A stretch of 64,000 nt of DNA, taken from positions 228,328-292,327 of the forward strand of contig NZ_AEDD01000006.1 in NCBI RefSeq assembly GCF_000179615.1, written 5' to 3'. Made by a program: the position numbers and the translations under genes. The notes below the pieces were generated by a model. The model ran no database searches and was not told the origin of the DNA. It saw only the letters and a list, made by a program, of their open reading frames with translations. The stretch comes from Paenibacillus curdlanolyticus YK9 (GTDB taxonomy: Bacteria; Bacillota; Bacilli; Paenibacillales; Paenibacillaceae). This document shows positions 4,273 to 23,109 of this stretch, one piece after another (positions within the stretch are counted from its first letter, which is position 1; every line of letters begins with the position of its first letter).

Positions 4273-4341
4273 TTTCTTTCCCCCAAAGCTAAAGTATAGA
4301 TTGCAAGCTTACAGTCAAACCGTCACGCATCCGCTCATGTT

Positions 4342-6254: not shown

Positions 6255-7165
6255 TTAGCTAAGATACCTAGCTGGTCCTTTAAATACTTCCCTTATATGC
6301 CAATTTACAAAGCTGTCTATCGGCGTATACACAGGGTGTATCGGAGAACGCACCTTTTTACCGTGATAACGCATAAGCCACTCCTCAAAACCATGCGTGC
6401 CATAAGCTTGTTCAGCCACTAGCAGCTCCTGCTCACCCGTTATCGTAAATACACCGCGATCAAACAATTTATGATGTAACGAACACAGAGCAATCCCGTT
6501 CTCTTCCGTGTCCGGCCCACCCGCTTGATGCCATTGGATATGGGCAGCGTCAATGCCTACTAACTGATGCCCCAACCGGACATTAAAGCCGCACACTGCA
6601 CAGCTGAACTCATACGCTTTCAATATGCGATCTCTAAAGTTCGGATCACGCTTCCGCTTTCTTCTTACTGAGAAATCAAGCCCGATCTCGTCGAGAATAT
6701 CCTGATGAATACTCTCTGGAAAATGCTTATTCAACAGCAATTCAGCCAACTCTTGGATTAGTAGGTCATTGTTTTGGAGCAGCACGAGCACGTCGTATGT
6801 AAACCCCGCGGATACTTGCTCTGTTAAGAGCTGCTTATCCGAAAAGTTTCTTTTGTCGACGGAGCCGGTTAATCTCCAAATCCCATCAGTAGTAAATGGC
6901 TCTTCAGGATGATAGGACTTTCTTGGAGGGCCGAACTCCATAAGCAGCTTTTTTAATTTGTCACGGACTTCTTCGTACGGTAAGATCGTGTGCTGCTGCT
7001 GCAGTTGAACAAGCGCTAGAAGAATTAGTAGAGGCTTATGCGGAGCCGTTGTCCGTTCTTTTTCCATATGGATAGATTAGATAGTTTATCTTTTAGCGAG
7101 GTCTGTTCCACTTCATCTACCTCTTTTAACGAAACTCGATTTCTCTTCAGTATACACCAACGCAT
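6255..7165 (-). pseudogene. Sulfur-binding-domain-type HNH endonuclease gene, frameshifted near the 5' end
   Basis: The downstream frame (7067 to 6255) starts ERTTAPHKPLLILLALVQLQ and ends with an HNH nuclease: C156xxC159, H176 in DAAHIQWH, N190 and HH198-199 in ENGIALCSLHHKLFDRGVF. APHKPLL is the signature of the SBD domain that reads phosphorothioated DNA in ScoMcrA-type type IV restriction enzymes. The expected preceding part, DKLSNLSIWKKNGQR, lies in another frame starting at an ATG at 7165. The two frames meet at about 7040-7047, consistent with a one-base loss. The intact-frame ATG at 7067 has no ribosome site. It is a damaged gene unless the shift is a sequencing error or is bypassed. 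It sits directly upstream of the DUF2075 helicase. Confidence 0.75.
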
Positions 7166-7281
7166 GCCTCTCGTTGCTTCCCTTAGTGTAAAGATCGTTC
7201 ATATACGAAAGTGCATTTAGGAAGTCATATTCAATTTCTTTAAAATAAGGGACTATGCATTCAATAAGGGGATAACAAGAG

Positions 7282-8298: not shown

Positions 8299-8304
8299 AA
8301 CTAA

Positions 8305-8484
8305 CTACTTCCCCTTCGACTCGAAATTTTTAAAAAAATTGATTAAATCTTGACCGTTCTTTTTGGAAGCTGCACTTGGCTGTTTTTTGATAGATTTCAA
8401 TATCTCTTTAGCATATTTTCCAGTAACAATAGGAGTGGCAGCGATTTGTGTTGCCATTGTTCTCTTCCTCCTTTTTTTGCCCAT
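8305..8484 (-). CDS. Small basic protein upstream of the GNAT gene, antitoxin-like
   Basis: This 59-residue ORF ends six bases before the GNAT start. Two in-frame starts each have a strong ribosome site: ATG at 8484 after AGGAGG, and an ATG nine codons later (MATQIAATPIVTGKYA) after a second AGGAGG. The text continues KEILKSIKKQPSAASKKNGQ and ends FFKNFESKGK. It lacks a recognisable DNA-binding domain. The short basic tail, tight coupling and the GNAT partner suggest an accessory or antitoxin protein. The second start, giving 50 residues, may be the main one. Confidence 0.65.
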   Translation of the reverse strand: MGKKRRKRTMATQIAATPIVTGKYAKEILKSIKKQPSAASKKNGQDLINFFKNFESKGK

Positions 8485-8858
8485 TATATCTACCTCCTAG
8501 AATCATCTAGTGGTAGTATATGATTAGACTATTAAATTGATGTTTGAATTTAAACCAATTAGGATATAATAATTAGTTGAAGCTTTTGCCTCCCTTTACC
8601 TAGCTCAAATATACCACTTCAAACATGATATTAGCAAGGTTCTACCAATTAAAAAGCGGAGCAGAAACCTCTAAAAACTGAGCGAGATTTCCTAACTAAA
8701 AGCATGAGGATTTTTCAAGGAATTTCCCTCTAATTTTCAACCTGATTTTATGCTACTTCTACTAATAATAAATAAGGTATTACTATTACCAACAAGGGTC
8801 ATCCATAGTCGGATGCCTCAAACAGCAAATCATTCAATTGCAGTAACAATATTCAAAT
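8485..8858. other. AT-rich intergenic stretch, no gene seen
   Basis: These 374 bp lie between the small GNAT partner and the IS3 left end. They are AT-rich. I see no coding frame with a ribosome site, no clear hairpin and no repeat. The promoter of the small ORF/GNAT pair should lie near 8500-8580, where TATAAT-like runs occur, but I cannot place it firmly. Confidence 0.4.
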
Positions 8859-8921
8859 TGACCCTGCCCCGAATAGATAGACACATAGAAAACCTCTATA
8901 ATAAAAGTGGAGGGATTTACT

Positions 8922-9218
8922 ATGGGGCAACGGAAGCAATTTGATAAAGCATTTAAAGAACAGGTGGTATCGCGAATTTTAGCCGGAGAAGCAACGATGG
9001 CGGATACGGCGAAGGATCTGAATGTTCATTACACCACAGTTCGAGACTGGGTGAAAAATTATAAGCTTGATGGAGAAAGTGCGTTTCCAGGCAGCGGCCA
9101 TCTTAAGGAAGAGGATGATGAGATTCGTAAGCTGCGGAAGCAACTGGCGGACCTCAAAGAAGAAAATGATATTCTAAAAAAGGCGGCGGCCTACTTCGCG
9201 AAAAATCAGAAACCATGA
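8922..9218 (+). CDS. IS3-family transposase OrfA
   Basis: The ATG at 8922 follows GGAGGG. The 98-residue product has an N-terminal helix-turn-helix (KAFKEQVVSRILAGEATMAD, then DLNVHYTTVRDWV) and a C-terminal leucine zipper (EIRKLRKQLADLKEENDILK). It binds the IS ends and partners OrfB. The heptamer AAAAAAG at 9176-9182, in the A_AAA_AAG phase, lies just before the stop. The -1 frame is open from there into OrfB, so a fused OrfAB transposase by programmed frameshifting is expected, as is known for the family. Confidence 0.93.
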   Translation: MGQRKQFDKAFKEQVVSRILAGEATMADTAKDLNVHYTTVRDWVKNYKLDGESAFPGSGHLKEEDDEIRKLRKQLADLKEENDILKKAAAYFAKNQKP

Positions 9219-10066
9219 GGTTCAAGTTTATCTTTGAACACCGCTTCGAGTTTCGGATTGCGAAGATGTGCCAAGCCTTGAATGTCTCAAGAAGCGGTTA
9301 TTATGCTCATATGAAGCGGCCAGAAAGCAACCGCAGCAAAGCGAACCGTGAGCTGCTTGATACGATAAAAGACATACACACCAATAGTCGCAGAATCTAT
9401 GGATCTCCGCAGATCACTAAGAATTTGCCACCGGAGAAGAAAGCCAGCCGTGGCCGCGTGGCACGGTTAATGCGAGCTAACGGGATTCGATCAAAAGTGG
9501 TAAAGAAATATAGAGCAACCACAAATTCAAGCCACAATCTGCCTGTTGCAGACAACATCGTGAATCAAGACTTTACAACAAGCAAACCCAATGAGAAATG
9601 GTTGAGCGACATTACTTATATCGCGACTGCTGAGGGCTGGCTTTATCTTGCTGGCGTGTTGGATTTACACGGCCGTAAACTCGTTGGTTGGGCGATGGAT
9701 AGCCGTATGAAAACAGAACTTGTCTGTGCTGCTCTGAAGCAGGCAATTGGCCGCACAGGCGCATCCAAAGGGCTTATCGTGCATTCTGATCGTGGCGTTC
9801 AATATGCCAGTAAAGGCTACCAGAAACTACTTAAGAAGAACGAGTTTGTATGCAGCATGAGTCGCAAAGGCAATTGCTATGACAATGCTCCAATGGAATC
9901 CTTTTGGAGAAAACTGAAGATGGAATGGCTCAATGATTACACATTCAGGACGCGAGCTGAGGCTAAGAAGGCAGTATTTGAATACATCGAGCTTTTCTAC
10001 AACCGTCGGAGAACGCATTCCTCCAACAATTATGTCCCGCCATTCCTGGTCGGAGCAGAGATGTAA
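9215..10066 (+). CDS. IS3-family transposase OrfB
   Basis: This 283-residue protein begins at an ATG overlapping the OrfA stop (ATGA). It has the HTH_21-type helper region (SGYYAHMKRPESNRSKANRE, then SRRIYGSPQITK) and an rve integrase core with the DDE triad Asp132 (WLSDITYI), Asp192 (IVHSDRGVQYAS) and Glu228 (DNAPMESFWRKLK). The end is the usual YNRRRTHSSNNYVPPFLV. All catalytic residues are present, so the element may be active. It works as the OrfAB fusion made by -1 frameshifting. Confidence 0.94.
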   Translation: MRFKFIFEHRFEFRIAKMCQALNVSRSGYYAHMKRPESNRSKANRELLDTIKDIHTNSRRIYGSPQITKNLPPEKKASRGRVARLMRANGIRSKVVKKYRATTNSSHNLPVADNIVNQDFTTSKPNEKWLSDITYIATAEGWLYLAGVLDLHGRKLVGWAMDSRMKTELVCAALKQAIGRTGASKGLIVHSDRGVQYASKGYQKLLKKNEFVCSMSRKGNCYDNAPMESFWRKLKMEWLNDYTFRTRAEAKKAVFEYIELFYNRRRTHSSNNYVPPFLVGAEM

Positions 10067-10172
10067 CTATTAGACTAATTGGTGTCATTGAGGGTTTCTG
10101 CGTGTCTACTTTTTCAGGGCAAGGTCATTTTGATGTATAATATGATCTATAGACGTTTCAGGAGGTACTATT

Positions 10173-10383
10173 ATGTCTGAGATCGGTAATCCCGTGCAAC
10201 TTAAGGAAGCTTCTAGGACATACTTTTTTCCAAATGGTGAGAAGGTAGTTCTTTTATAATGTAACTGAACTCATTGTCCGTGACTCTGGAACTCATCGTT
10301 TGAAAACAGCTGATAACAAACTACATATTATCCCTACTGGATGGATTCATATCGAAATTGATGAAACTGAGTGGACCCTTTGA
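10173..10383 (+). pseudogene. Small unknown gene with a one-base frameshift
   Basis: The ATG at 10173 follows a good CAGGAGG site and reads MSEIGNPVQLKEASRTYFFP NGEKVVL before an early stop at about 10257-10259. Shifting frame by one base at the TCTTTTA run gives YNVTELIVRDSGTHRLKTAD, then LHIIPTGWIHIEIDETEWTL and a stop. The joined product would be about 70 residues. An extra T is the simplest cause. I do not recognise the family. It follows the IS3 right end by 45 bp and ends in a terminator. Confidence 0.6.
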
Positions 10384-10416
10384 AATAGGCAGGTAATACC
10401 TGCCTATTTCTTTTTT
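10383..10416. terminator. Intrinsic terminator between convergent genes
   Basis: AAATAGGCAGGTA pairs with TACCTGCCTATTT, followed on the plus strand by CTTTTTT and preceded by A/T-rich bases for the minus strand. It separates the frameshifted small gene from the convergent five-gene operon and could serve both. Confidence 0.85.
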
Positions 10417-10423
10417 AGACTAT

Positions 10424-11146
10424 TCAAAGAATAATTCTTATACGTTTACCAAATATAATTTCTCCATTATGGAAATTAACTGAAAAAGCCTGGGTCTGCA
10501 TTCCTAGATCTAGACATTCTTTAAAACTATGATAATACTCTCTGTAGGTATCATCAAGTTTAATTCTTCTAACTGTAGGACTTAAAGAAGTAATAATGTA
10601 AGTAACCTTTTCACCTTCATGAAGCAATTGTTTTATTCGTGACAACTGAAATATTGCTCTTTCTGAATAAACACTCGGAAACATGACCTCTTGTTTAGAA
10701 GATATTACCCCCTTTACTTCAATTATATTTCGATTTCCTTCATCATTTTCTATCAATAAATCAGTCTTGTATCCGTTAATTATGTGTTCTCGTTTGATGC
10801 TAAAACTACTTAATGATTTCAATTTATTTTCTTGTATCAAAAATTGCACGATAGAATTTACCATATTCAAATTAACTAAAATATACTTATTGTAATACTT
10901 CACCGCGAACAGTGAATACTCAGTTCGCCTATTTTTACTTTTGTTTTTAGTTAACAGCACTTCACGATTTTTCAATTTCAAATAATTCTCAATCCGTGAT
11001 GAACTAGGTACATAGCACTCGTTAACTAAACCATCAATCATAACTGTACATAGAAATCTATTTTTACTTTCTTTAATAAAGGTACCTTTAGTTATATCAT
11101 GTACAAACACTCCACACACTCTCTTTCCATCATCAAAGAAGTACAC
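10424..11146 (-). CDS. SfsA-like PD-(D/E)XK nuclease, last gene of the candidate defence operon
   Basis: This 240-residue protein has the SfsA layout: a small N-terminal beta domain (GTFIKESKNRFLCTVMIDG, then CYVPSSSRIENYL) and a restriction-type core with Asp129 (YKTDLLIE), Glu143 and Lys145 (NIIEVKGV), then VMFPSVYSERAIFQL, the counterpart of the SfsA FPDA..RG..H block. SfsA proteins bind DNA and are predicted DNA/RNA nucleases. The sequence is divergent and very AT-rich. The start is a GTG at 11146 lying inside a perfect hairpin, 11 bases after AGGAG. It follows the FtsK-like gene by 31 bp. I infer that it is the cutting subunit of the operon's system. Confidence 0.75.
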   Translation of the reverse strand: MYFFDDGKRVCGVFVHDITKGTFIKESKNRFLCTVMIDGLVNECYVPSSSRIENYLKLKNREVLLTKNKSKNRRTEYSLFAVKYYNKYILVNLNMVNSIVQFLIQENKLKSLSSFSIKREHIINGYKTDLLIENDEGNRNIIEVKGVISSKQEVMFPSVYSERAIFQLSRIKQLLHEGEKVTYIITSLSPTVRRIKLDDTYREYYHSFKECLDLGMQTQAFSVNFHNGEIIFGKRIRIIL

Positions 11147-11170
11147 CGTTAGGTTGGCTCCTAACGGTGT
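11143..11170 (-). promoter_or_regulatory. Perfect hairpin covering the start of the SfsA-like gene
   Basis: Arms ACACCGTTAGG and CCTAACGGTGT, 11 bases each, surround a 6-base loop. In the transcript the 5' arm and loop hold the AGGAG ribosome site and the 3' arm holds the GTG start. A folded RNA would hide both. The following bases are not a T-run of terminator quality, so translation control seems more likely than termination. Confidence 0.6.
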
Positions 11171-11177
11171 AAAATAA

Positions 11178-14100
11178 TTATATATATTTCTCTAAAAACC
11201 TCTCTAATTCCTCTTCACTGATAAACAATCCCTGAAGCCTTGTCATATCGCCATTTAGTGAAAACAACATATCTCCTTGTCCTAACAAGTCCTCAGCTCC
11301 CGGAGAATCCAGAATCGTCATGGAATCCTGGTGCGCTGGCAATCTGAAGGAGATCCTGCAAGGGATGTTTGTTTTCAAATTTGAGGTAACAATATCAGCA
11401 CTTGGTCTCTGGGTAGCGACAACTAAATGTATCCCTACATTCCTTGATCGCTGCGCCAATCGGATCATTTGTCTCTCAAAGTCCTTTTTTCGCCCTTCAA
11501 GGTCTGCTACCTGAACAAGATCAGCATACTCATCAATTATTACAACGATTGGTTTTAATGGCGATTCAGGATTCTTCTGGTTGTAGCTAAACAAATCTCT
11601 GCTACGTGATTGACGCAGCATCTCTGTTCTTCTTTCCAATTCATTTTCAGTCAAATCTGTAAGTACCTCAACTGCTTTCTCAGCGTCTAATATTACCTCT
11701 TTATTACGAAGATGAGGAAGACCGTCGAAAAATATAAAGTCAGTTTGCTTGGGATCAATAATTACTAATTCAAGTTGCTCATGGCTATATTGTGAAATCA
11801 AGCTTACAATCAAGCTGTAAAGGAAAATTGTCTTACCTGATCCAGTCGAGCCAGCAGTAAGCATATGTGGAGCCTGGGCAATGTTTAGCAGTTTAAACTC
11901 TCCACTTGGATCTTGTCCAATCACTACATTCAGATTTCCAACAGGTGTATCGCGCGGCAGCATACTAAGATAATCTAAGAGTTTAATTGAATCACTGCTC
12001 TTGCGGGGAACATCAACAAAAACAAATTGAGTACCACGCTCATTTCCAACAAGAATTTCAGATTCAGCTTCTATTTCCCTTGTAATATCCGTACGATACC
12101 TTAATACCTTTTGTAATGTTTCGCCGGCTCTTAATCTTACTCGGAATCTAATAAATCTTGATGCTACTAAAGCCAAATCTGGATCTACGGAGGAAACATC
12201 AATTGAATAATCTCGCAATGCCCTATATAACGTACCCGCGTCTTTGAGGATTTGCGCCTTCAACTCCGCCGCCCTATCTTGCTCTTCAATTACTACTGCA
12301 ACTGTAGCCTCACCATGATCATCATCGCCTCCAATCCCATCAGCTATCTGCTTTCTTTCATCAGATATATTAGCTGCTTCTTGCTCAACATCGAGTGGGA
12401 TCATACTCACATCACGTGATATGGCAGAAGCGCCATCCGAGGAAGGATTTATTGAGGGCTGAGTTGAGCTCTTTATTCCCTTAAAACTTATTGAATCGAA
12501 TTTACTTTCAAAGCTGATCTCGCAGCAATTAACTAGAACCTTATTAATAAAGTCGTCACGTATTTCCAACAGATTTATTTTATAATCTGAGTCCAACTGC
12601 CTGCTAGTGGAAACTCCTTGCTCACTAAACCTGACATGATGAATTGAGGAATTAATAGTGACAGGTATTTCCCCAGCAAATAGACGATTTAATTGGTATG
12701 TCCACTCCTTCTTATCCGTCTTTGATAAGGGAAGCTGATAAAAAGCTCTAAATGCCTGAAACCTAAGTAACTCTCTTCGAGATGTGCTTGTAATCTTGTC
12801 CCTCTCATTAAAAATCTCGTGAATAATACTTCTTACTGAATTCACCTGTTCTACAGCCTTTCCCGTGATCTCATTGTTGTCAATTTGATAAGCCCCATCG
12901 TATGTTTTAACCTCAACAATATCTATTACTGCTTGATGCTCATCGAAGGTGATTCCAATTAGATCAGAAAAAACTCCTTCTTCACGTTCATCTAACCAAC
13001 TCTGTGCAAGTTCTGTATCCAAGCTTACTAGGATAAAATTCTTTGAATTTTGCTTTGACCAAATTGCGGAAATTGCAGTACCAAGTGCTCCCTTGGTATG
13101 ATTAATATTAAAGGTCCTATCCGCCTTTGAAGAAGCGAGGCTTAATACTCCTCTTTCATTTAAGCCTTGAATTGTTCTAAGCACCTGACCTACACACTCT
13201 TCCTTTGGACCATAATTCCCAATGGAACGAATTGTATAGTCCATCCCCTTTGTAAGCTTTGCCCAGTCATTCGAATAAACCCCTACGTCACGAAATGACT
13301 TAGACTGATAATAGATACACTTCTCGGAGCCTATAACGCTCATTTCAAGGTTTTTTAAATTGGCATCAGCAATAATTAACCACGGCACAGCTTTAAGCAA
13401 CTCATTAAATTCCTGTTTACTTGTCTCTAACTCTAAAACTATTGTGTGATGCCACCCCTGAGGCTTATCGTTTAGACGACCAATTAGATCATGATGATCA
13501 GAGAATATATTTCCATCTGAAGCAGGTAAAATCTCTACTTTATCTGCGATAGGGTCGTATTCAAACACCTTCGGGATGCATAACGGATGAATTTTAAGTA
13601 GTGGATTTCTTCTAGTATTTGATACGGACTTCTCACATGGATCAAACAATACAACTGTATGAAAGTGATTCTTTTTTACCGATTCAACCAGTGCTTCAAA
13701 CCCTAGTACAATAGTGTCGATCTTAATAGAAAAGTTTGGATCATTTGAAAGAGCAAACTTACTGTATATGGTATCATCCACATCATCAAAGCTTGACCAA
13801 TTTTCAGGGGTCTCTTTAGTTTTATATATATGTAAATGAGCCCCCTGAAGGCTTACATCCTTTGCTCGGAGCATTCCCTTAACCAGGTCAAAAACATGTT
13901 TAATACTTGGAGGATTCACAAAGGCAGCTCTTATTCCGTACGAACTGTGAGGATACACCTTAATGAACTTCATCAGTGATTTTTCAATTACCTGAAGACC
14001 GTCAAGCATTTGATTGACCTGCTGCTCGCTTGAATAAATCGGCAGCTTACCAAGTAAACTTACCTCTGGAATTACTCTGTCACCTTTGTTTGAATTGTAG

Positions 14101-15824
14101 CTACTGACGAAAACTGTAGGTAACGGATTCGGAATTTCCTCTGACGCTCGAACAAGGAAATCTTTATCAATCTCACTCAAACTGGACGAGGATTCTTTTA
14201 ATCTAACCGTGAGTTCGACGTATTTCCAAAGATATAATGGAAATAATGGTGTGCTGGTTGCGTGTAAGCTTTCCTCGCCAACAATATAGATCATATCTAG
14301 AGAATTAATACTAGCTATTAACTGCTTCGAGCCTTTGGGACTGAAGGAACTAAATAAACCATAATGCTGTTTAATAAGCATAAGAACTCTTCCGTACAGT
14401 TCTACATATGAAGCGCAGCTTTTTAAAATTTCATCGGTTTCAACAATCTTAAGTATAGGACAATCTGCTAGACGGTGAGCCGCGCTTACTAACCTGCTTC
14501 TGATAAATAATAGTTCGTTAAAGGCTACCGATAACCCCTTGACCTCAGCATATTCATCCTCGAATAAGCTGATAATTTCCTTAATTCCGTCAATATACTC
14601 TCTATCAAACACCCTAACTCGAAATTGCTCCAACGAACGAAATGCATCTATCGGGTTTTTAACATTGGCTTTAATTACGCCCCCGAAGGCGTTTTCACCA
14701 ACAAAGGTTTGAATGAGGTTATAGATCTCAGGAATAAACTCAATCCGAGTGCTCTCATTTTCACTCTCAACATTAACTTTACTTGCCTTCCCTTTTTCCC
14801 ATTCAGTATACTTTTGTTCGATCTCATCAAGCAGCCCTTTTACCTTCTCTGTGTCGTGCTCAATAATTAAATCAACAGCCGTCGACTCTGGCGAGCCCGG
14901 CCTTTTTCTTGGTTTTTCCGAATTTTCATCAGAATCTTGTGTATCCTCTTCGATATCAACAGACTTTTTCTTGCCCGTCTGCCCGCCCTTTACCTTTGAA
15001 AGGAGTTCCTGGACATCACTGTATTTCATTTGTCCAAGAGCGGTAACCTCTCTTGTACTATAGTATCGAAGTATATTGGATCGAGTGGAGTGGAATTTAT
15101 CCGATTCAGGGTTAGATTGAATTGCTTTCCGATCCTCTTTATTTAGATTGCTTATTCGTGAGACTATTCTAGAGTTTTCGGTTAGTCTCTGTCTAATTGA
15201 ATCTATGTGATTCTTAACAAATACACTATCATCGATTAACAATCCTAGTCTAAATAAGTGCTCTACAGAATCTCTTGGAATGTCCTCATCATTTAGTGTT
15301 AAATACTGATAATAGTCAATTAGTCGTTCTAATGAGATTAGTTCCATTATTTTTTTTGAATTTAGAGCTTTCCACATATTCTTTAACGATTCATTGATAC
15401 CGCCTAACTGCCTTTCAGCAGTGATACATAGTTCCTTATAAATCTCTTCTGCTGTTATTTGCTCATACCAACGAAGAGAGGAGAGCTTTGGAACTACCCT
15501 TTTTACAATTACAATACGAGTGCTATTAATGTCTCCGTCATTTCTGAAATCCTCAGCTTCTTCTACAGAATAGTATAGAGAAAGAAAGGTAAGCTGATTA
15601 CTCAGTTCGAGACGAAGTTCATCAAGCTCGACTTCCGTGAAGCCGACAAAAAAAACATTTGGCTTTGTCAGACTTTGTTCTTGAACTCTAAGCTCGAGCA
15701 TACTAATAAATTTGCTGTATGAATATTTGGGTAAGTCCTTTAGGAGTATACCGTAGCTCTCATTTAAAACTCTTTTACAGACGATAGCAGCAAGTATATC
15801 TGAAAGCACTTTTTCAGAAGACAT
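11178..15824 (-). CDS. 1548-aa FtsK/SpoIIIE-type DNA translocase, DptH-like size and layout
   Basis: The last 240 residues are an FtsK/HerA-type motor: Walker A HMLTAGSTGSGKTIFLYSL at about 1315, LELVIIDPKQTDFIFF, Walker B IVVIIDEYADLV near 1415, and the FtsK motif GIHLVVATQRPSADIVTSNL. The preceding ~1300 residues are unrecognised except for a very acidic, low-complexity linker near 280-305 and another near 1130-1200. No membrane helix is seen, unlike true FtsK. The size and C-terminal motor resemble DptH of the phosphorothioation-dependent restriction system, but I cannot confirm homology. The start ATG is three bases after the upstream stop, whose GGGGG serves as ribosome site. It is probably the DNA-pumping core of the system. 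Confidence 0.8.
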   Translation of the reverse strand: MSSEKVLSDILAAIVCKRVLNESYGILLKDLPKYSYSKFISMLELRVQEQSLTKPNVFFVGFTEVELDELRLELSNQLTFLSLYYSVEEAEDFRNDGDINSTRIVIVKRVVPKLSSLRWYEQITAEEIYKELCITAERQLGGINESLKNMWKALNSKKIMELISLERLIDYYQYLTLNDEDIPRDSVEHLFRLGLLIDDSVFVKNHIDSIRQRLTENSRIVSRISNLNKEDRKAIQSNPESDKFHSTRSNILRYYSTREVTALGQMKYSDVQELLSKVKGGQTGKKKSVDIEEDTQDSDENSEKPRKRPGSPESTAVDLIIEHDTEKVKGLLDEIEQKYTEWEKGKASKVNVESENESTRIEFIPEIYNLIQTFVGENAFGGVIKANVKNPIDAFRSLEQFRVRVFDREYIDGIKEIISLFEDEYAEVKGLSVAFNELLFIRSRLVSAAHRLADCPILKIVETDEILKSCASYVELYGRVLMLIKQHYGLFSSFSPKGSKQLIASINSLDMIYIVGEESLHATSTPLFPLYLWKYVELTVRLKESSSSLSEIDKDFLVRASEEIPNPLPTVFVSSYNSNKGDRVIPEVSLLGKLPIYSSEQQVNQMLDGLQVIEKSLMKFIKVYPHSSYGIRAAFVNPPSIKHVFDLVKGMLRAKDVSLQGAHLHIYKTKETPENWSSFDDVDDTIYSKFALSNDPNFSIKIDTIVLGFEALVESVKKNHFHTVVLFDPCEKSVSNTRRNPLLKIHPLCIPKVFEYDPIADKVEILPASDGNIFSDHHDLIGRLNDKPQGWHHTIVLELETSKQEFNELLKAVPWLIIADANLKNLEMSVIGSEKCIYYQSKSFRDVGVYSNDWAKLTKGMDYTIRSIGNYGPKEECVGQVLRTIQGLNERGVLSLASSKADRTFNINHTKGALGTAISAIWSKQNSKNFILVSLDTELAQSWLDEREEGVFSDLIGITFDEHQAVIDIVEVKTYDGAYQIDNNEITGKAVEQVNSVRSIIHEIFNERDKITSTSRRELLRFQAFRAFYQLPLSKTDKKEWTYQLNRLFAGEIPVTINSSIHHVRFSEQGVSTSRQLDSDYKINLLEIRDDFINKVLVNCCEISFESKFDSISFKGIKSSTQPSINPSSDGASAISRDVSMIPLDVEQEAANISDERKQIADGIGGDDDHGEATVAVVIEEQDRAAELKAQILKDAGTLYRALRDYSIDVSSVDPDLALVASRFIRFRVRLRAGETLQKVLRYRTDITREIEAESEILVGNERGTQFVFVDVPRKSSDSIKLLDYLSMLPRDTPVGNLNVVIGQDPSGEFKLLNIAQAPHMLTAGSTGSGKTIFLYSLIVSLISQYSHEQLELVIIDPKQTDFIFFDGLPHLRNKEVILDAEKAVEVLTDLTENELERRTEMLRQSRSRDLFSYNQKNPESPLKPIVVIIDEYADLVQVADLEGRKKDFERQMIRLAQRSRNVGIHLVVATQRPSADIVTSNLKTNIPCRISFRLPAHQDSMTILDSPGAEDLLGQGDMLFSLNGDMTRLQGLFISEEELERFLEKYI

Positions 15825-15827
15825 TTT

Positions 15828-17303
15828 TTACCCCCTCAAGGAAATAAACGTTACACCATCAGCATAACGTTTCCCATATCCCATCGAAATTAAAGTATCA
15901 GCAATTTTTTCTGCATTCTTTGCCAGATCACCAGCTAGATCACCTGGCGTATTTTGAGTCACCTTCCAGTTAGTCAGCTTTTCATAATCTGCCTCGGGGT
16001 TAGCACCAAAAATTATTCCATATCTATTCCATAGCTCTTGACCAAATTGGCTTAAAGTCAACCCACGTCCAGGTTCTAGGATAGTCAATAGCAAGATTTC
16101 CATGATAAGTGGATCAGGTGAGTATCTCTTACGCTTTCCACCCTGAGCTCTCGGCGCGAGCAGAGCGATTCTTCCACCGAAGGTTGAAATAAAGGTCGAA
16201 GGATCGGTATCATATTCATCGGCAAAAAGCTTAAAGCGTGATGCCTTTATAAAGGCTTCAAAGGGATCTTGGAGTTGCTCGAAGTAACCTAGGTAAAGTG
16301 CACGGTAGCTTTTTCTCTTTTCTTCCTCTTCCTCACGGTTAGAGGTTCTTCTTGAGCTTTCCTCTAAACGCAAATCATTAATCCGTACAAGCATTTCCTC
16401 ATGTGTAAATGTATCATAATTCTCAAGAGATAGAATTTCTTCCAAGCCCTTTTCGAAGAACCTTTCAATTAGTAGCTTTGCTACTACCAAGGTCTCCTCA
16501 CTAGCATACTTCACTGAATCAAGCCCACCATCAGCATCAATAAGAATAGGAACCCTATCATCAACAGGAAATTCCGAGGATAAGTCTAGTACCTTTGAAG
16601 ACAAATGATTTATGATAGCAAAACAGCCAAACAGAATAATCCTTTCTAAGGTCAACAACTTGTTACCTGAAAACATCTCATTTTCAGCCAACTTGTCAAA
16701 TGAAGACCTTAATCTAAGTTCCACACCACTCAGCATAGGCAAATCTGTTTTAGCAGTTTGATCGTGAGCTTTCTTTTTAGCGAACTTGGTCAAAGGCGCT
16801 GCAATTCTGCTGAGATCATCGTTCTCATTCTCTAAAAATTCTTTGATAAGTTCTAGACATGGCGAAGCTTGTCCATTCACCTCTGTAGTAAGTATACGGT
16901 ACAAGAAGCTATGTAATCCGGCTTCCAGTGCAACAGACCCTCGAACTTGGGTTTTACTGCTAATTGTCAAAACAGTGTTATTCGCACTTGGGAATGCAGC
17001 ATTATCAGCATTAAAAATGATATTTAAGTAATACCGAAGCATATTTATCTCATCATCGTCAAAGCCATTATCATCGAAAGCATCATTGTATTTATCCCTT
17101 ATTTCCGTTGCTGGATTAACCTCCTTACCTTGCTTCCAGCGAATTATCCACTCATTTAAAGCATCCACCGTATAGCTTTCTCCAGAAACAAGTCTAAATA
17201 AGCCATTAGCAACATGAACCGGTTTAATGGATGAAGAAGTGGGTCTATATTGTATATAGTCATTTAATACCTGACTCCCATATTCCTTCAATCGGTTTGA
17301 CAT
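15828..17303 (-). CDS. Unrecognised 491-aa protein of the candidate defence operon
   Basis: The start is the ATG at 17303, four bases after the stop of the ATPase gene, using the GGGGG of that gene's last codons as ribosome site; an ATG 33 bases earlier has no such site. I recognise no domain with certainty. Visible are a mostly helical composition, a highly charged stretch (SNREEEEEKRKSYRALYL, around residue 325) and a C-terminal region that reads like a winged helix (PDPLIMEILLLTILEPGRGL, then SQFGQELWNRYG). Its place between a P-loop ATPase and an FtsK-like translocase matches the position and rough size of DptG. That is inference from order alone. Confidence 0.7.
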   Translation of the reverse strand: MSNRLKEYGSQVLNDYIQYRPTSSSIKPVHVANGLFRLVSGESYTVDALNEWIIRWKQGKEVNPATEIRDKYNDAFDDNGFDDDEINMLRYYLNIIFNADNAAFPSANNTVLTISSKTQVRGSVALEAGLHSFLYRILTTEVNGQASPCLELIKEFLENENDDLSRIAAPLTKFAKKKAHDQTAKTDLPMLSGVELRLRSSFDKLAENEMFSGNKLLTLERIILFGCFAIINHLSSKVLDLSSEFPVDDRVPILIDADGGLDSVKYASEETLVVAKLLIERFFEKGLEEILSLENYDTFTHEEMLVRINDLRLEESSRRTSNREEEEEKRKSYRALYLGYFEQLQDPFEAFIKASRFKLFADEYDTDPSTFISTFGGRIALLAPRAQGGKRKRYSPDPLIMEILLLTILEPGRGLTLSQFGQELWNRYGIIFGANPEADYEKLTNWKVTQNTPGDLAGDLAKNAEKIADTLISMGYGKRYADGVTFISLRG

Positions 17304-17307
17304 TCTT

Positions 17308-18858
17308 TTACCCCCGCTTGGATACATATTGTGCATTATTTACCTTAACCCGATATGATGAACGATTATCCATATCCCTTATCAAAAACTCATTCGTTCT
17401 GCTTGTCGATTCTAACGAAGAAAGCTCGTTCATGAAACGAAGTAGCTTAAATTGATGCTGCTCGGGCACAAGTTGTGATGGGTAGCCTATTTGAACTAAC
17501 GTTAAAACTCGATAAAGGTTCAGGTCAATTCTTAGCTCAACAAAAGCCATCTCTTTTGACTTATACACGCGGAAAAGAAAATGATCGGGAACGTATTCCA
17601 TTTCCGTCAAATGCACAGGAAGCCTTGGAACCAGTAGTTCAATTTGATTCGAATATGCATATTTACTTGTAACAGCTACCCTTGGATAAGTACGAAGCTC
17701 ATATTTATGTGTCGTCCAGATTTTCAGCTTATCATCATCATGATCATCAGGATTGAAGAACTTATTGATACCGGATATAATCTCCCTTATCATTTCATCC
17801 TGTCTATCGTAACCCTGGATCAATACATCGTAATAAGCCTTATATTCTGTGGGAAGGAGATCTAATAATTCATGTCCACGCTCATTTTCAAAATAAAACC
17901 TTCTCTTCAAGGCTTTAAAGGCTTCTAAAGGTTCTTCTGAATACTCAGGGGAATCATATTCATCCTGGAATAGCCATCCATCTGTGAGGGTTCCGTTCCA
18001 TAGACGTTCATCAATCTCTGGATGAGAATAATGATACGGATCAAATATGGCTAAAGCAGTAAACAATTCGTTAGAGCCATTAAATATTAGATTGTAATAA
18101 TCATTTTCATTAGAGTCTTCATTTTTTCTAATTATGCACTTTTTACCTGATGTGATGACATACGCAAAAAAGCCTAAGATATCTCTCATTACAACATGAA
18201 GCCCTATGCTCCCAAGTTTTTCAATAACAGAAAATAATCGCTGTTGCACAACTGAGTGCTTTAGCTTTACTAAATTTGTTGAAGCTGTGCAGCTATTGTC
18301 TGTACAATTTTTGCAAGGTTTACTAATCTCCAGCAGCTTATTCAAGGTTTTTTCTAGCATATCCTTGGATAATAGATTCCGATTGTTTAAATCAACAACA
18401 ACCACTTCTTCAACTGTCTCTTCGTTTCCCTTATTGTAGATTATCCCTTGTTCCCTTTGAGTCATGATCTGCTGGAAGCCTGGAAGCCTATCGCCTAGCT
18501 TTTCCAACAAAGAGATAAGCGGAAATTCATTTATCGCCACAATACAAGGTTTCCCCTCAGAAAATGCCTTTGTTAACTCCGTTAAAAAAGCCTCCTCGTC
18601 CTTAATGCTGTTTGCATCAGGTTCCACATAGGCTTCATGTACATCAAGAATCGGTTTTAACGATTTTATTAAATGCGTCTTTCCATCCCCAGGATTTCCA
18701 GTTAGAAAAATAAGCTTCTTTTGTTCAACGTATTTTTTTAGCAACGCCTCAATCCCGGATTCCACATGGAGAGTGCGGAGTTCCTCCGCACTAAATACAT
18801 CTGCATAGCTATTTCGATTATTATAAAGCTTTGCGATAAAATCTAAATCAAAGTACAT
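17308..18858 (-). CDS. P-loop ATPase of the candidate defence operon, DptF-like
   Basis: This 516-residue protein has a Walker A at 54-61 (KKLIFLTGNPGDGKTHLIKS), a Walker B-like strand at about 104-113 (KPCIVAINEFPLI), and a Cys group CKNCTDNSC at 182-190 that could bind metal. The GNxGDGK form recalls DptF-type ATPases of phosphorothioation-dependent restriction, but the resemblance is by eye only. The ATG follows GGGGGAG with an 8-base gap and lies 14 bp after the DUF4338 gene stop. No membrane segment is seen. It likely uses ATP to sense or remodel a DNA-protein complex together with the downstream translocase. Confidence 0.75.
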   Translation of the reverse strand: MYFDLDFIAKLYNNRNSYADVFSAEELRTLHVESGIEALLKKYVEQKKLIFLTGNPGDGKTHLIKSLKPILDVHEAYVEPDANSIKDEEAFLTELTKAFSEGKPCIVAINEFPLISLLEKLGDRLPGFQQIMTQREQGIIYNKGNEETVEEVVVVDLNNRNLLSKDMLEKTLNKLLEISKPCKNCTDNSCTASTNLVKLKHSVVQQRLFSVIEKLGSIGLHVVMRDILGFFAYVITSGKKCIIRKNEDSNENDYYNLIFNGSNELFTALAIFDPYHYSHPEIDERLWNGTLTDGWLFQDEYDSPEYSEEPLEAFKALKRRFYFENERGHELLDLLPTEYKAYYDVLIQGYDRQDEMIREIISGINKFFNPDDHDDDKLKIWTTHKYELRTYPRVAVTSKYAYSNQIELLVPRLPVHLTEMEYVPDHFLFRVYKSKEMAFVELRIDLNLYRVLTLVQIGYPSQLVPEQHQFKLLRFMNELSSLESTSRTNEFLIRDMDNRSSYRVKVNNAQYVSKRG

Positions 18859-18872
18859 ACTTCTCCCCCAAA

Positions 18873-20942
18873 CTAAAAGTATTTACTTAATAACATTGAG
18901 GCTTTTCTAAAGGAACTAAGTCTGTCGATAATATCAACAGTCTCAATTCTATTCAGAAACCATCGCTCTCTCCAGAAGTCAATTAATTGCTCCGTGTATT
19001 TCTCCTCATGACCATTTAGTGGAAGTAAGTAGTTTAACTCCTTAGCCTCTCCCTTTAGGAATTCGCGGGTATTTGATGCTAATGAAACACCGTAAACAAT
19101 TCTTCTTGTATGATGCTTTAAGTAATTTCCCGAGGACATTCCCAGTGCAGAAAGCCCTGAGCGTATTAGTCGTAAACGAGGACTTGTTCCTTCGCCAAAG
19201 ACATTATTTATTTTTCTACCACCATCAATCAGTTGTACCATTGTGCTTATGAATCGTGTGGTTTCCTGTGCAAAAAAAACTGATCCAAACCCCTCTGTCT
19301 CACCTAGTTTTTTATATTCTAGATACTCACCATCTTCGACAGGAATCTTGATCCTGTTGTATTGGCTGCTTCCCATATGATATAGACTTGTAGTCCCCAA
19401 AAAGGCAAGCTGAGAATCCCTAACAATCTTTTCACCTTTCATTCTAGATGCGATCTCACTGACTTGTTCTGAGTATCTATCGTTATATCCCTTTACCACT
19501 AAAGGACTACACATTAGGATGCTTACGAGTTTGCCTGCGAGAACCTCATTATATGGAGGGATCGCACCACATACAATGATTTCCATCAAATTCGAGCCAA
19601 TCTTGCTCTTTCGGTTTGCTTGCAACGCAATATTAACGGATTTACCTTTATCATTTGACAGCAACTTTTGTAATGCCCTGAGATTATCCCGCTCGGATTC
19701 CAACACTTTTCTGATATTAAGCTTTGCTTCTAGAAGCTTTGCTAATTCAATCGCTCTCTTTTTTGTAAACAGAGGTGTACTTGCCTCCTCATACCAATTA
19801 ATTTCTCCAGTAGTTCTTTTGTTATTTAGCTGGAGATCCTTCAGTGATTCAGCAACTCCCTTCAATCTTTCTATGCATTCAGAGTTAGGATTTTGAATTT
19901 CATCAGCCGTCAATAAATCTACAGGTGTTATGTCACTAATTGCTTCATCTAAAAATGTTAACAAGAGTTTTATAGTCTTGTCACTTTCTAACCGAATACG
20001 CTCTTGATACTCACGGTCATTTTCTAAACTAGTTGTTTTTATAACAGGTCTTGTTATTCCTAGCTTTCCAGGAAGAATTTCCTCAAACACCTCTGTTTTA
20101 ACTTTCTTCTTCAATACACTCTTGATAGAATCAAGTGTCCAACCAATGTATTTATCTCGATTTGTTAGTTGCAATACGCAATTACCCAAGGCTGCAATCC
20201 CCATGACAGGATGAGAAGGCTGTGCGGCATCCCTAATTAAATAAAAGACATTTCTGCCTGGTGTCGATTTGTAGGGGATTGACCATGTATAACGAAAATA
20301 TCTCCAAATGTCCATTAGCTTATAGCCTGTATGCTTACAAGATGAATTATCTACAAGCTGAACATATGGCTTTATCCCTGAAGCAGCCATTCTAATGCGC
20401 TCATCTTGTTTGACACTGTCTTTTATTTTCGTTATTGTTGAAGAAAGTAGAACGCTGTCCCCAATAAGATCCAGTATGCTTAGTTCTTTTCCTTGGTACT
20501 TACGCTTCTTTTCCATCTTATTAATGAAGGACTTAATGCTATCCAGCTTAAACTGTGCGTTTCTCTCGTGCTGAAGTTGCTTGCGCAAGTAAGCCTTGTC
20601 ATCTCCTCTAAGTAAGACGGGAGGAGCAAGCATCAACTCATGCTCATTATTTTTAAGAACTCTCCATTCCTGAGTTAATAAATCTCTCAAAATACTTAAT
20701 ACTGAGAGAAGCTTCATTCCCTCCAGATCATCTAAATTAATATTACTTTTCCATTTTTGAATTTGCTCATTAAGATATTGAATACGTCGGTAGTTAAACA
20801 TAACTAATAAAGCTGCAGTTATTTTATTAAAAATATCCAAATAATTTCCATTAATAGTCGGTTTAAAGAGCATAAAATCAGTAGTATCAACAGTCTGACT
20901 TGTAATGTATTCAACGTTCTTCTTAGTTGCTTGCTTACTCAT
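18873..20942 (-). CDS. DruA-like (DUF4338) protein, first gene of the candidate defence operon
   Basis: This protein is about 689 residues long. Two blocks resemble DUF4338, the family of Druantia DruA: one near 231-270 (GRNVFYLIRDAAQPSHPVMG, then LQLTNRDKYIGW) and one near 457-531 (CGAIPPYNEVLAGKLVSILM, then TTSLYHMGSSQYNRIKIP). The N-terminal ~180 residues are helical and unassigned. I chose the ATG at 20942 (AGCAGG six bases upstream); an in-frame ATG at 20969 has no ribosome site. Druantia loci carry a very large DruE helicase; none is present here. The gene heads a tight five-gene operon. A LexA-type box lies about 75 bp upstream. Confidence 0.72.
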   Translation of the reverse strand: MSKQATKKNVEYITSQTVDTTDFMLFKPTINGNYLDIFNKITAALLVMFNYRRIQYLNEQIQKWKSNINLDDLEGMKLLSVLSILRDLLTQEWRVLKNNEHELMLAPPVLLRGDDKAYLRKQLQHERNAQFKLDSIKSFINKMEKKRKYQGKELSILDLIGDSVLLSSTITKIKDSVKQDERIRMAASGIKPYVQLVDNSSCKHTGYKLMDIWRYFRYTWSIPYKSTPGRNVFYLIRDAAQPSHPVMGIAALGNCVLQLTNRDKYIGWTLDSIKSVLKKKVKTEVFEEILPGKLGITRPVIKTTSLENDREYQERIRLESDKTIKLLLTFLDEAISDITPVDLLTADEIQNPNSECIERLKGVAESLKDLQLNNKRTTGEINWYEEASTPLFTKKRAIELAKLLEAKLNIRKVLESERDNLRALQKLLSNDKGKSVNIALQANRKSKIGSNLMEIIVCGAIPPYNEVLAGKLVSILMCSPLVVKGYNDRYSEQVSEIASRMKGEKIVRDSQLAFLGTTSLYHMGSSQYNRIKIPVEDGEYLEYKKLGETEGFGSVFFAQETTRFISTMVQLIDGGRKINNVFGEGTSPRLRLIRSGLSALGMSSGNYLKHHTRRIVYGVSLASNTREFLKGEAKELNYLLPLNGHEEKYTEQLIDFWRERWFLNRIETVDIIDRLSSFRKASMLLSKYF

Positions 20943-21015
20943 ATTGAACCTGCTTTCATAATTGATCATATAAAGATCATTTTACTACATATTTAAATAT
21001 CGCGCAGTCTTTTCA

Positions 21016-21029
21016 AGAACAAATGTTCC
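21016..21029. promoter_or_regulatory. LexA-type (SOS) box upstream of the defence operon
   Basis: AGAACAAATGTTCC matches the Gram-positive LexA consensus CGAACRNRYGTTYC at 13 of 14 positions and has the exact GAAC-N4-GTTC core. It sits 74-87 bp upstream of the chosen DruA-like start, in the position expected for an operator. The core promoter elements nearby are not clear to me; TTGAAA at about 21011-21016 could be a -35. Confidence 0.6.
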
Positions 21030-21378
21030 TGTTAATGGTAGTCAACTTTCTCCCCCTGAGTAGAAGTACAAATTTGACTATTTTGATACCTCCACTACTA
21101 GAATACACTATTACCAAATTCATTCGACCTTACATCCTTTTATCCCTGCTAACCTAGGAAAAAGGACCCAATTGAGTCCCGTCTCTCCTTGAGGAGATTT
21201 ATCTAATTCACAAAATAAACCGGATAATCAGTCAACTTTTCAACCGCCTCTTTACCCTTTAATTCAAATGCCCTCTCAATAATATTCTGCTGCTTTTCGC
21301 GCAGCGTCTCTGCACAGGGTCGTACCACCATAAGAAGCTGCGTGTTTATTCCAATTACGTTCCTTAACAGTATGGAAA

Positions 21379-21433
21379 AGCAAAAGAGCCGCTAACCTCG
21401 ACATGATCAACTTTTCATGTGGGGGTAGCGGTT
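21379..21433 (-). terminator. Imperfect long hairpin with T-rich tail downstream of rlmD
   Basis: GAACCGCTACC...ACATGA pairs with TCATGT...GGTTAGCGGC around a small loop, followed in the minus direction by TCTTTTGCTTTT. It would end transcripts leaving rlmD before they enter the AT-rich block. It could alternatively have belonged to a lost integrase gene. Confidence 0.55.
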
Positions 21434-21472
21434 CAAAAACCATGGAGGTTTTGTTTTGCTTTTACATGCAGA

Positions 21473-21567
21473 TTTACGGCAACTTTACGGCAGCTCTCTT
21501 AGAAACCGTCTGTTGCACTAACTACAGAAACGCTGTTCAATTTATAAACCCTTATATATCAAGGGTT
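21473..21567. other. Candidate recombinase attachment region at the rlmD 3' end
   Basis: Two direct copies of TTTACGGCA (21473-21481 and 21484-21492), 11 bp apart, resemble integrase arm-binding sites. A palindromic core AACCCTT-N7-AAGGGTT (21547-21567) directly abuts the rlmD stop codon. The 3' end of rumA/rlmD-type genes is a known target of integrative elements in Firmicutes. No integrase gene is left in the window and no second copy of the core was found in it. Confidence 0.4.
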
Positions 21568-23109
21568 CTAAGCATCTGTAACACTCTTCACAAGCAATGC
21601 GACGTTTTCAACATGCACCGTCCACGGAAACATATCCACCGGCGTCACTTCCACCGTCCGATACCCGCCATCCTCCAACACCCGCAAATCCCTAGCCAGC
21701 GTCGAAGGATTACACGACACATACACAACACGCTCCGGCTTCATCCGAATGATCGTATCCAGCAGCGCTGCATCGCAGCCCTTCCGCGGCGGATCGACGA
21801 CGATCACGTCCGCAGCAATCCCTTCCTCGCGCCAGCGAGGAATCACGACCTCCGACAATCCCGCCTCAAACTCCGCATTCGCAATCCCGTTCAGCTCCGC
21901 ATTCCGCTTCGCATCCTCAATCGCCTCGGGCACTACTTCTACGCCGTACACGCGCCCCGCCTTCCGAGCAAGGAACAACGAAATCGTCCCAATGCCGCAG
22001 TAGGCGTCGATAACCGTCTCCGCTCCCGTCAAACCTGCATAATCCACAGCTTTCCTATACAAGGCAACCGTCTGCGACGGATTAACCTGATAGAACGAGC
22101 GCGCGGAGATGGCGAAGCGAATGCCGTCGAGCTCATCATAGATAACATCACTGCCCCACAAAGTCCGCGTTTCATCGCCGAAAATAACGTTCGTGTCGCG
22201 CGTGTTCACATTTTGCACGATGCTATTCACATCAGGCAGAGCGGCACGAATACCCGCGATCCACTCCGTTTTATTCGGGATGTGAGTGCCGTTCGTAACA
22301 AGAACGACCATGAGCTCGCCGGTGACGAAGCCGGTCCGGACGACGACGTGGCGCAGCAGGCCGCGGCCGGATTCCTCGTCGTAAGCGGTGATGCCGAGCT
22401 CGGTGCCGATGCGCTTGATCTGGCGCACGACCTCGTCGTTGCGCTCGTGCTGGATGAGGCAGGCGTCCATGTCGATGATGCGATGGCTGCCTTGGGCATA
22501 AAATCCGCCGATCAAGCCGCCCGCAGCGCCGTCCTCGATATCCGCCAGCGCCATGCCGATCGGCACCTGCGCTTTGTTGCGGTAGCGCCACGGCTCGTCC
22601 ATGCCGATGGTCGGATGGACGATGATATCGACATCAACGTTGAGCTTGCCGATGCGCGTCAGGTTGTCGACGACATGCTGGCGTTTCCAGCGCAGCTGCG
22701 CTTCGTAGCTCATATGCTGCAGCTGGCAGCCGCCGCATTGCTTGTAGATGGTGCAAGGCGCATTGACGCGATCCGGGCTCGTCTGCATCAGCTTCATCAG
22801 CTTGGCATAGCCGTACTGCTTCTTTACTTTGAGCACTTTCACGAGCGCCTGCTCGCCGGGAAGCGCGCCGTGGACGAACAGCGTGAAGCCGTTCGCGCGG
22901 CCGACGCCTTCGCCTTCATGCGTCAGTCCGACGATGTCGATGACATATTCCTCGTTCTTGTTCACGGGCGCGTTCACCGCTGCCGCCGCAGTCGCCGTAC
23001 CCGCTCCGCCGGATGACGTCCGATACCGGCTGTTTCTTTTGCCGCCGCCTGCCGATCCGCCCGTTCCTCTCTTGCCCGTCGCCTGCGACGGCTTGCCCTT
23101 ATTGTTCAT
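21568..23109 (-). CDS. rlmD: 23S rRNA (uracil-C5)-methyltransferase
   Basis: This is a 513-residue RumA-type enzyme. A Gly/Ala/Lys-rich N-terminal extension of about 48 residues precedes a TRAM domain ([20 protein letters not shown], then [20 protein letters not shown]). The iron-sulfur Cys cluster [15 protein letters not shown] follows, then the SAM-binding motif [20 protein letters not shown] and the catalytic Cys block [15 protein letters not shown]. It transfers methyl from SAM to C5 of uridine in 23S rRNA. In Bacillus a single enzyme (RlmCD) can do both U747 and U1939; which applies here is not readable. GC-rich and colinear with the backbone, it borders the AT-rich accessory block at its 3' end. 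Confidence 0.92.

What the first reader, a model, noticed from the sequence alone, without database searches (positions are those of the whole stretch)
10424..20942. Five-gene operon mixing a DruA-like protein, a P-loop ATPase, an unknown protein, an FtsK-type translocase and an SfsA-like nuclease
Seen: five tightly spaced minus-strand genes in AT-rich DNA next to a candidate integration site, with Walker motifs in two, a DUF4338-like pattern in the first and a PD-(D/E)XK pattern in the last. Known: DUF4338 defines Druantia DruA, and ATPase-unknown-FtsK-like order with matching sizes recalls dptFGH. Inference: neither system fits, because DruE is missing, dndBCDE is missing from the window, and SfsA-like nucleases are not standard parts of either. 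It may be a new defence system in which the DruA-like and ATPase proteins recognise DNA, the translocase moves it and the nuclease cuts.
Basis: partly seen in the sequence, partly recalled or inferred. Interest (0 to 1): 0.92.

Follow-up and report, generated by a model that had tools for sequence, protein, structure and literature searches.

The report
Restriction machine borrowing Druantia's DruA protein
A conserved set of five genes joins a DNA-pumping restriction machine usually tied to sulphur-marked DNA to the DruA protein of the Druantia defence system and to a second DNA-cutting protein, which suggests a little-studied anti-virus system and gives a testable handle on what DruA does.

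Summary
The five-gene operon is real and conserved. In order it encodes long DruA (GNAT-like fold), F, G and H (distant relatives of SspF/G/H and DndF/G/H) and an SfsA-family nuclease. In a pattern-based scan of about 85,000 species genomes, 29 of 32 DruA relatives sit directly before F. DruA and F are one polypeptide in 23 of 42 loci. The SfsA-like gene is present in 30 of 31 Bacillota-type loci whose far side is held (two of them in part), but in 0 of 6 from haloarchaea and Hymenobacter. Of 29 such genomes, 26 lack both phosphorothioate (PT) marker genes sought, SspD and DndC. The window's genome lacks both and encodes a PT-DNA-binding endonuclease homologue 3.4 kb away. In six loci (two Bacillota, four haloarchaeal plasmids) the Druantia helicase DruE lies near the module. 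Best reading: a PT-independent DndFGH-type restriction machine with DruA as its switch or aiming subunit and SfsA as a second nuclease. It is a new variant of a known kind. The DruA-F fusion is already in print as a GNAT/DUF4338 fusion; my searches found no paper describing the SfsA or Druantia link. No function was tested.

The parts
18873..20969 (-). Gene A: long DruA (DUF4338), 698 aa; predicted GNAT-like fold (about 200-314 and 456-640) with an N-terminal region and a helical insert (about 318-456)
17308..18858 (-). Gene F: DndF/SspF-like P-loop protein, 516 aa; Walker A GNPGDGKT, Asn at the Walker B position (29 of 29 sequences), Cys-rich insert
15828..17336 (-). Gene G: DndG/SspG-like protein, 502 aa; profile match over about the C-terminal two thirds
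11178..15824 (-). Gene H: DndH/SspH-like protein, 1548 aa; methyltransferase-like fold without SAM motifs (about 600-853), REase motif (D954, E971-V-K973), FtsK ATPase (1283-1475 by Pfam, match to SspH to 1544)
10424..11146 (-). Gene E: SfsA-family PD-(D/E)XK nuclease, 240 aa; D129, E143, K145 invariant in 26 sequences. The true start may lie downstream of the GTG, which falls in an inverted repeat (by reading)
6255..7067 (-). Neighbour, not part of the module: homologue of phosphorothioated-DNA-binding HNH restriction endonucleases
   Evidence: NF045808, 327.8 bits, cut-off 180
8907..10066 (+). Neighbour: IS3-type transposase orfA/orfB between the module and the rest of the AT-rich DNA
21568..23109 (-). 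Neighbour: RlmD-like rRNA methyltransferase gene (named by reading, not by a family search) at the module's other side

Best explanation
This is a phosphorothioate-independent restriction machine of the DndFGH/SspFGH kind in which DruA stands where the DNA-marking module usually stands. F, G and H form the core: G and H bind DNA, the FtsK domain of H moves it, and the REase domain of H cuts it. DruA, built on a GNAT-like fold, docks on F (or is fused to it) and acts as the subunit that recognises the trigger or licenses the machine. The SfsA-like protein is a second, dedicated nuclease that processes the DNA held by the complex. In some relatives the same DruA may also be shared with the Druantia helicase arm (DruE). 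Shown by computation: gene content, conservation, fusion, domain kinship, intact active-site motifs, absence of the PT markers sought, DruE nearby in six loci. Inferred: complex formation, DruA's role, order of events, anti-phage function.
For: Co-conservation: 29 of 32 DruA relatives in genome contigs lie before F (one of the 29, L043, has lost most of F, all of G and half of H); the 5 long DruA genes found in 4 of 398 phylum genomes all lie in loci with FGH (two share one set). DruA-F fusion in 23 of 42 loci, Hymenobacter included. A/F/G/H distances correlate 0.98-0.99, 0 of 999 permutations (may largely reflect the main clades). F, G, H profile matches to SspF/G/H (E 6e-13, 5e-10, 2e-32) against seven mismatched pairings with E 0.14-0.56. 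H REase and FtsK motifs invariant in 27, F Walker A invariant in 29 but for its Pro. E active site intact and E apart from canonical SfsA. SspD or DndC absent in 26 of 29 genomes, SspD found in 6 of 6 controls; PT-DNA endonuclease homologue next door. Defence neighbours: ABC-3C, Lamassu, AbiE, type IV REase. DruE near the module in six loci.
Confidence: 0.55

Rival explanations
1. DruA is a back-up effector: a GNAT acetyltransferase that modifies host proteins or RNA when FGH restriction is defeated, as proposed in print for variable domains fused to DndF.
Against: Optional effectors vary between relatives, whereas DruA is present in all 42 FGH loci, though those were mostly found with DruA. 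The one search made with G instead found 10 of 296 genomes: 4 DruA-linked and 6 beside SspD. DruA-family proteins also lie near DruE and, in short form, near HerA and NurA, which looks like a core function.
Confidence: 0.17
2. DruA is the self-marking enzyme: a GNAT-type enzyme that chemically marks host DNA, so that FGH attacks unmarked DNA, taking the place of PT modification.
For: FGH in six relatives sits beside a DNA-marking module (SspD in 6 of 6; SspB, SspC, SspD by PADLOC in L016) and here beside a GNAT-like protein. Fusion of DruA to F resembles joined modification-restriction enzymes. GNAT self-marking is proposed in print for BRC systems that carry HerA/FtsK (PMC12839542, passages). 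A 2026 review table lists Druantia under DNA modification (PMC12904381, passage).
Against: No sequence kinship to phage Mu Mom: hhalign score 13.2 with the short-DruA profile against a shuffled mean of 15.3 and maximum of 24. No biochemical evidence; catalytic residues not assigned.
Confidence: 0.13
3. FGH here still works with PT marks, made elsewhere in the cell.
For: F, G, H are kin of SspFGH/DndFGH; 3 of 29 genomes carry SspD or DndC.
Against: 26 of 29 have neither marker, including the window's genome, which encodes a PT-DNA-binding endonuclease homologue 3.4 kb away. DruA-linked FGH from haloarchaea are far nearer to the window's than SspFGH of Paenibacillaceae and their order (H 528-555 against 95-102 bits).
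Confidence: 0.04
4. A decayed Druantia I locus that happens to lie beside an unrelated FGH restriction set and a stray sfsA.
For: DruE is near the module in six relatives and not found here.
Against: Same order in dozens of loci, with DruA-FGH also in haloarchaea and Bacteroidota; DruA-F fusion; open frames with conserved motifs; E apart from canonical SfsA.
Confidence: 0.02

Closest known systems
SspFGH (of SspABCD-SspFGH) and DndFGH/DptFGH restriction modules
   Same: Three adjacent genes of the same order and similar size; F with Walker A and Asn at Walker B; H with methyltransferase-like, REase and FtsK parts; profile-profile matches.
   Different: No SspBCD or DndBCDE beside it; F, G, H only distantly related (window F to six SspF: 3-5 bits by phmmer); coupled to DruA and SfsA.
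Druantia type I (DruA-B-C-D-E)
   Same: DruA family (PADLOC DruA1, residues 71-690); DruE near the same module in six relatives, one with a DruB-like gene, DruC, DruD and DruE.
   Different: No DruB-E in the operon and no DruE in its genome; long DruA forms a clade apart from the nine short DruA rows, which include three plasmid loci with DruE; FGH is not part of described Druantia (recalled).
DndFGH variants with a GNAT (DUF4338) domain fused to DndF (Rakesh, Aravind, Krishnan 2024, PMC10853773; sections 12, 19-22, 25 read)
   Same: Very probably includes the DruA-F fused loci seen here; FGH as a standalone system without PT genes.
   Different: Main text does not mention Druantia or SfsA; the domain is treated as an optional co-effector; supplements could not be read.
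SfsA (sugar fermentation stimulation protein, PDB 4da2)
   Same: OB + PD-(D/E)XK architecture; match over residues 28-234.
   Different: 26 system rows separate from 16 canonical rows (support 100); below the equivalog cut-off (80 against 126 bits); seen here only beside this module, but not searched for on its own beyond the sfsA model.

Membership tests
DndFGH/SspFGH restriction module | F: derived P-loop kinase with Asn at Walker B | tested here: met
   Asn in 29 of 29 F sequences, Walker A conserved; hhalign to SspF E 6e-13 over 461 columns
DndFGH/SspFGH restriction module | G: triple winged-helix protein | tested here: inconclusive
   hhalign to SspG E 5.4e-10 over 307 columns; its fold was not predicted
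DndFGH/SspFGH restriction module | H: inactive methyltransferase + REase + HerA/FtsK | tested here: met
DndFGH/SspFGH restriction module | H N-terminal SWI2/SNF2-like, HTH and beta-sandwich domains | tested here: inconclusive
   Model pLDDT 76; Foldseek no hit at E 0.001; the VIA rows cover about 600-900 only
PT-dependent restriction system (Dnd or Ssp) | A PT-marking module (SspBCD or DndBCDE) in the genome | tested here: not met
   G000: no SspD or DndC match. Across relatives 26 of 29 lack SspD and over-cut-off DndC; 3 of 29 have one (G700, G082, G698). Only these two markers were sought
Druantia type I | DruA present | tested here: met
   PADLOC DruA1 5.4e-149, residues 71-690
Druantia type I | DruE helicase present | tested here: not met
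   G000: only a 97-residue helicase match, E 1.1e-7. DruE is near the module in six relatives
SfsA family | SfsA OB and RE domains with D...ExK | tested here: met
   PF17746 and PF03749 above cut-off; D129, E143, K145 invariant in 26
SfsA equivalog (housekeeping) | TIGR00230 cut-off of 126.45 bits | tested here: not met
   80.3 bits; separate branch
GNAT acetyltransferase fold (gene A) | GNAT fold | tested here: met
GNAT acetyltransferase activity (gene A) | Acyl-CoA binding and transfer | not testable with these tools
   A glycine-rich loop (PPYxxxLxGKL) is conserved in long and short DruA; cofactor unknown
Anti-phage defence system | Protection against phage when expressed | not testable with these tools
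   Only defence-island context

The most novel reading that the evidence does not exclude
DruA is a new kind of self-marking enzyme: a GNAT-type protein that chemically marks host DNA (or free nucleotides), so that a DndFGH-type translocase-nuclease attacks unmarked DNA. The same mark would serve two restriction arms, the FGH-SfsA arm and the Druantia helicase arm, which some bacteria and archaea keep in one locus.
Probability: 0.12. Interest if true: 0.92.

Novelty: new variant of a known kind. Interest (0 to 1): 0.72.

Why it matters
Two open questions meet here. What does DruA do? Its domain name DUF4338 is in only three papers of the library searched. And how do DndFGH machines tell self from foreign without phosphorothioation? 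A module in which DruA is often fused to the FGH core, and in which Druantia and FGH arms lie in one locus in bacteria and archaea, ties the two together and makes both testable in one five-gene operon. It also points to a defence role for a branch of the SfsA nuclease family.

Tried and rejected
PT-dependent reading: made unlikely for this genome by the absence of SspD and DndC matches and by the PT-DNA endonuclease homologue next door. Against it being wholly excluded: 3 of 29 relatives carry a PT marker, 8 further ones have DndC-like matches below the cut-off (as do 3 of 6 controls and 5 of 14 well-known genomes), and other PT genes were not sought. Chance neighbourhood: rejected by conservation. 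SfsA as a housekeeping gene caught beside the operon: rejected by score and tree. DruA as a relative of phage Mu Mom: no sequence signal, within shuffled controls. Direct repeats marking an integrated element, 6900-21800: none of 18 bp or more. The ~380-aa and ~550-aa genes upstream of many fused loci as a sixth component: those tested are ABC-3C-type genes (CTD11, DUF2326), taken as a neighbouring defence set. DruA against PDB by sequence: nothing. Foldseek of DruA and of H 1-1195: nothing at E 0.001; only the VIA second look was informative. DruA in phage records: none. The paper search for SfsA with several phage-defence terms was swamped by other words; the stricter one gave four papers, of which I read one passage (PMC2743648): an SfsA-like nuclease domain beside a prokaryotic Argonaute, a different system.

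The genome-contig scan used two peptide patterns and so favours near relatives. In some searches the term DruA also matched the word Druantia. Rows dropped before counts: for L012, L021, L042 and L052 and sequences under 80% coverage; for the duplicates L021, L042 and L052, and L050-L051; for the neighbour survey I gave 124 of the 145 ORFs listed, and only the first 25 of 101 Pfam and 86 PADLOC families are shown; for the SfsA tree 16 of the 29 canonical proteins recovered; 6 of 11 short-DruA phylum genomes were fetched. Near-identical rows (L032/L033, L038/L039) were kept in counts; the DruA of L041 and L048 are identical too.
Full report
OBSERVATION. Five minus-strand genes lie at 10424-20969: A (698 aa), F (516), G (502), H (1548) and E (240), with gaps of 14, -29, 3 and 31 bp, in DNA of 34-41% GC beside DNA of 48-62% GC.

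WHAT THE PROTEINS ARE. A is a DruA: Pfam PF14236 E 2.8e-37 and PADLOC DruA1 E 5e-149 over residues 71-690. F, G and H match SspF, SspG and SspH of PADLOC weakly and partly (E 7e-19; 4e-8, residues 381-498; 1e-72, residues 1192-1544), and F matches NCBI's DptF model below its cut-off. E matches both SfsA domains, the SfsA equivalog model below cut-off (80 against 126 bits) and the solved P. furiosus SfsA 4da2.

CONSERVATION OF THE SET. A protein-G search of 296 genomes of the order found 10: four with the DruA-FGH set (G000, G172, G206, G082) and six with Ssp-type sets. A DruA-profile scan of genome contigs gave 32 loci, 29 with DruA before F; L020 and L041 are cut by the contig end within or after F, and L043 has lost most of F, G and half of H. 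Viral contigs gave three loci, all with DruA-F fused (L052 repeats the Muricomes locus L033, L054 is partial). In 398 genomes of the phylum long DruA occurs in 4 (5 genes), all in loci with FGH, and short DruA only in 11. E is present in 30 of 31 loci of the Bacillota type whose far side is held, in part only in L012 and L023; Bhargavaea L022 lacks it in the held DNA. L020, L026, L041, L054 and L093 are cut too early to tell. In G335 the set is followed by a second DruA, and in G602 E is convergent. DruA and F are fused in 23 of 42 loci: one clade of 20 rows, the partial L054, G206 and Hymenobacter.

BEYOND BACILLOTA. On plasmids, 14 records carry DruA relatives; I opened all 14. Five haloarchaeal records (L102, L106-L109) have DruA-F-G-H; L106 has broken frames. 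Hymenobacter L103 has fused DruA-F, G, an IS3 insertion, and H in pieces. These six lack an E match. By phmmer with the window's proteins, four haloarchaeal sets score F 170-200, G 136-144 and H 528-555 bits, and six SspFGH sets from the window's own order 3-5, 18-23 and 95-102. Long DruA without FGH was found in Poribacteria L031 and in Rhodobacterales L104, L105, L110 and L111; in L105 and L110 DruE is near. L112 is cut by the record end.

DRUANTIA LINK. In Neobacillus mesonae the DNA before DruA encodes a DruB-like protein (CoiA_N 3.8e-9; not tested against a DruB model), DruC1 (1e-50), DruD1 (5e-13) and DruE1 (2132 bits, full length), then DruA-F-G-H-E on the same strand. G206 has DruE1 pieces, a DruB-like match and a DruD-like piece before DruA-F-G-H-E. 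Four haloarchaeal plasmids have DruE on the opposite strand: two genes away from DruA and divergent in L102, L107 and L108, convergent after H in L109. The window's genome has no DruE. In 398 phylum genomes DruD1 occurs in one, beside DruC, DruE and a short DruA. The three plasmid loci with short DruA (L113-L115) have a DruE match and no gene annotated FtsK in the stretch shown.

NO PHOSPHOROTHIOATION. SspD was sought in 29 genomes with the module and 6 control genomes: 1 of 29 (G700) and 6 of 6. DndC over its cut-off: 2 of 29 (G082, G698), 0 of 6; below the cut-off 8 more of 29 and 3 of 6. The window encodes, 3.4 kb from gene E, a homologue of phosphorothioated-DNA-binding restriction endonucleases (NF045808, 327.8 bits, cut-off 180). 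By the action known for that family (recalled), PT-marked DNA would be cut, so this cell is expected to be PT-free.

E IS APART FROM HOUSEKEEPING SFSA. Canonical sfsA is over its cut-off in 138 of 249 phylum genomes. E proteins (26 rows) and 16 canonical SfsA proteins fall on two sides of one branch with support 100 in a quick tree. E's D129, E143 and K145 are invariant in 26. G000 has no other SfsA match.

CONTEXT. Among 124 neighbouring ORFs the commonest families are ABC-3C CTD11 (6), DUF2326 (6) and Fic (5); PADLOC hits include LmuA (3), type IV REase (2) and AbiE genes; integrase, resolvase, ParA/ParB and Mob families also occur (only the first 25 families are shown). These are signs of defence islands on mobile DNA, without a background control.

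MECHANISM. Shown: composition, order, fusion, motif conservation, absence of the PT markers sought. Inferred: F-G-H act as a DNA-translocating nuclease (an abstract seen, PMC11662687, states nickase and translocase activity for DndFGH); DruA supplies recognition or licensing through F; E processes the DNA. Alternatives are DruA as back-up effector (printed proposal) and DruA as self-marking enzyme, for which GNAT self-marking in BRC systems is a printed parallel proposal (PMC12839542 passages). Mom kinship was tested and not found.

PRINT STATUS. Searches: DruA+DndFGH (3 papers), Druantia+DruA+DruE (25, 7), DruA+SfsA (26, 0), FGH names (31, 1,183 with 40 listed), DUF4338 (32, 3), two of Druantia/FtsK/DndF (92, 10), Druad1 (107, 1), SfsA with phage-defence terms (140, 1,021 with 10 listed), DruA+acetyltransferase (141, 1, not opened), SfsA+defense system (143, 4). 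Opened: PMC10853773 (sections 12, 19-22, 25 and passages), PMC12904381, PMC12458937, PMC8565338, PMC12839542 and PMC2743648 (passages), PMC13192584 (searched for the words DruA and DUF4338, none found). None of what I saw joins Druantia's DruA with FGH and SfsA; supplements and subscription papers were not seen.

Noticed in passing
window 6255-7067 (-): Homologue of phosphorothioated-DNA-binding HNH restriction endonucleases (NF045808, 327.8 bits) in the same AT-rich island; possibly mutually exclusive with PT-using systems.
   Followed up: partly
L094, L095, L097, L099: Short DruA (DUF4338) beside HerA (DUF87), with NurA in three of the four: an apparent DruA-NurA-HerA operon in Bacillota.
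   Followed up: partly
L105, L110, L104, L111 (Rhodobacterales plasmids): Long DruA without FGH, preceded by an ATP-binding protein (HATPase in L105 and L110, MzaB-like in L110) and, in L105 and L110, near DruE: another DruA combination.
   Followed up: partly
L091/L092 (G335): Two DruA genes bracket one F-G-H-E set (DruA-F-G-H-E-DruA).
   Followed up: no
window 21568-23109; L059 2-631; L019 3-383: An RlmD-like gene flanks the DruA-FGH module in two genomes and an Ssp-type FGH system in a third: a likely defence hotspot.
   Followed up: partly
window 11140-11170: Inverted repeat between H and E, covering the listed GTG start of E (by reading); possible attenuator or sign that E is a separately acquired unit.
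   Followed up: no
L043 (Oscillospiraceae MAG): Apparent in-frame internal deletion joining DruA and the start of F to the C-terminal half of H, with E kept.
   Followed up: no
window 3784-6225 (-): Barstar-family gene and a Schlafen-group-3 helicase gene in the same island.
   Followed up: no
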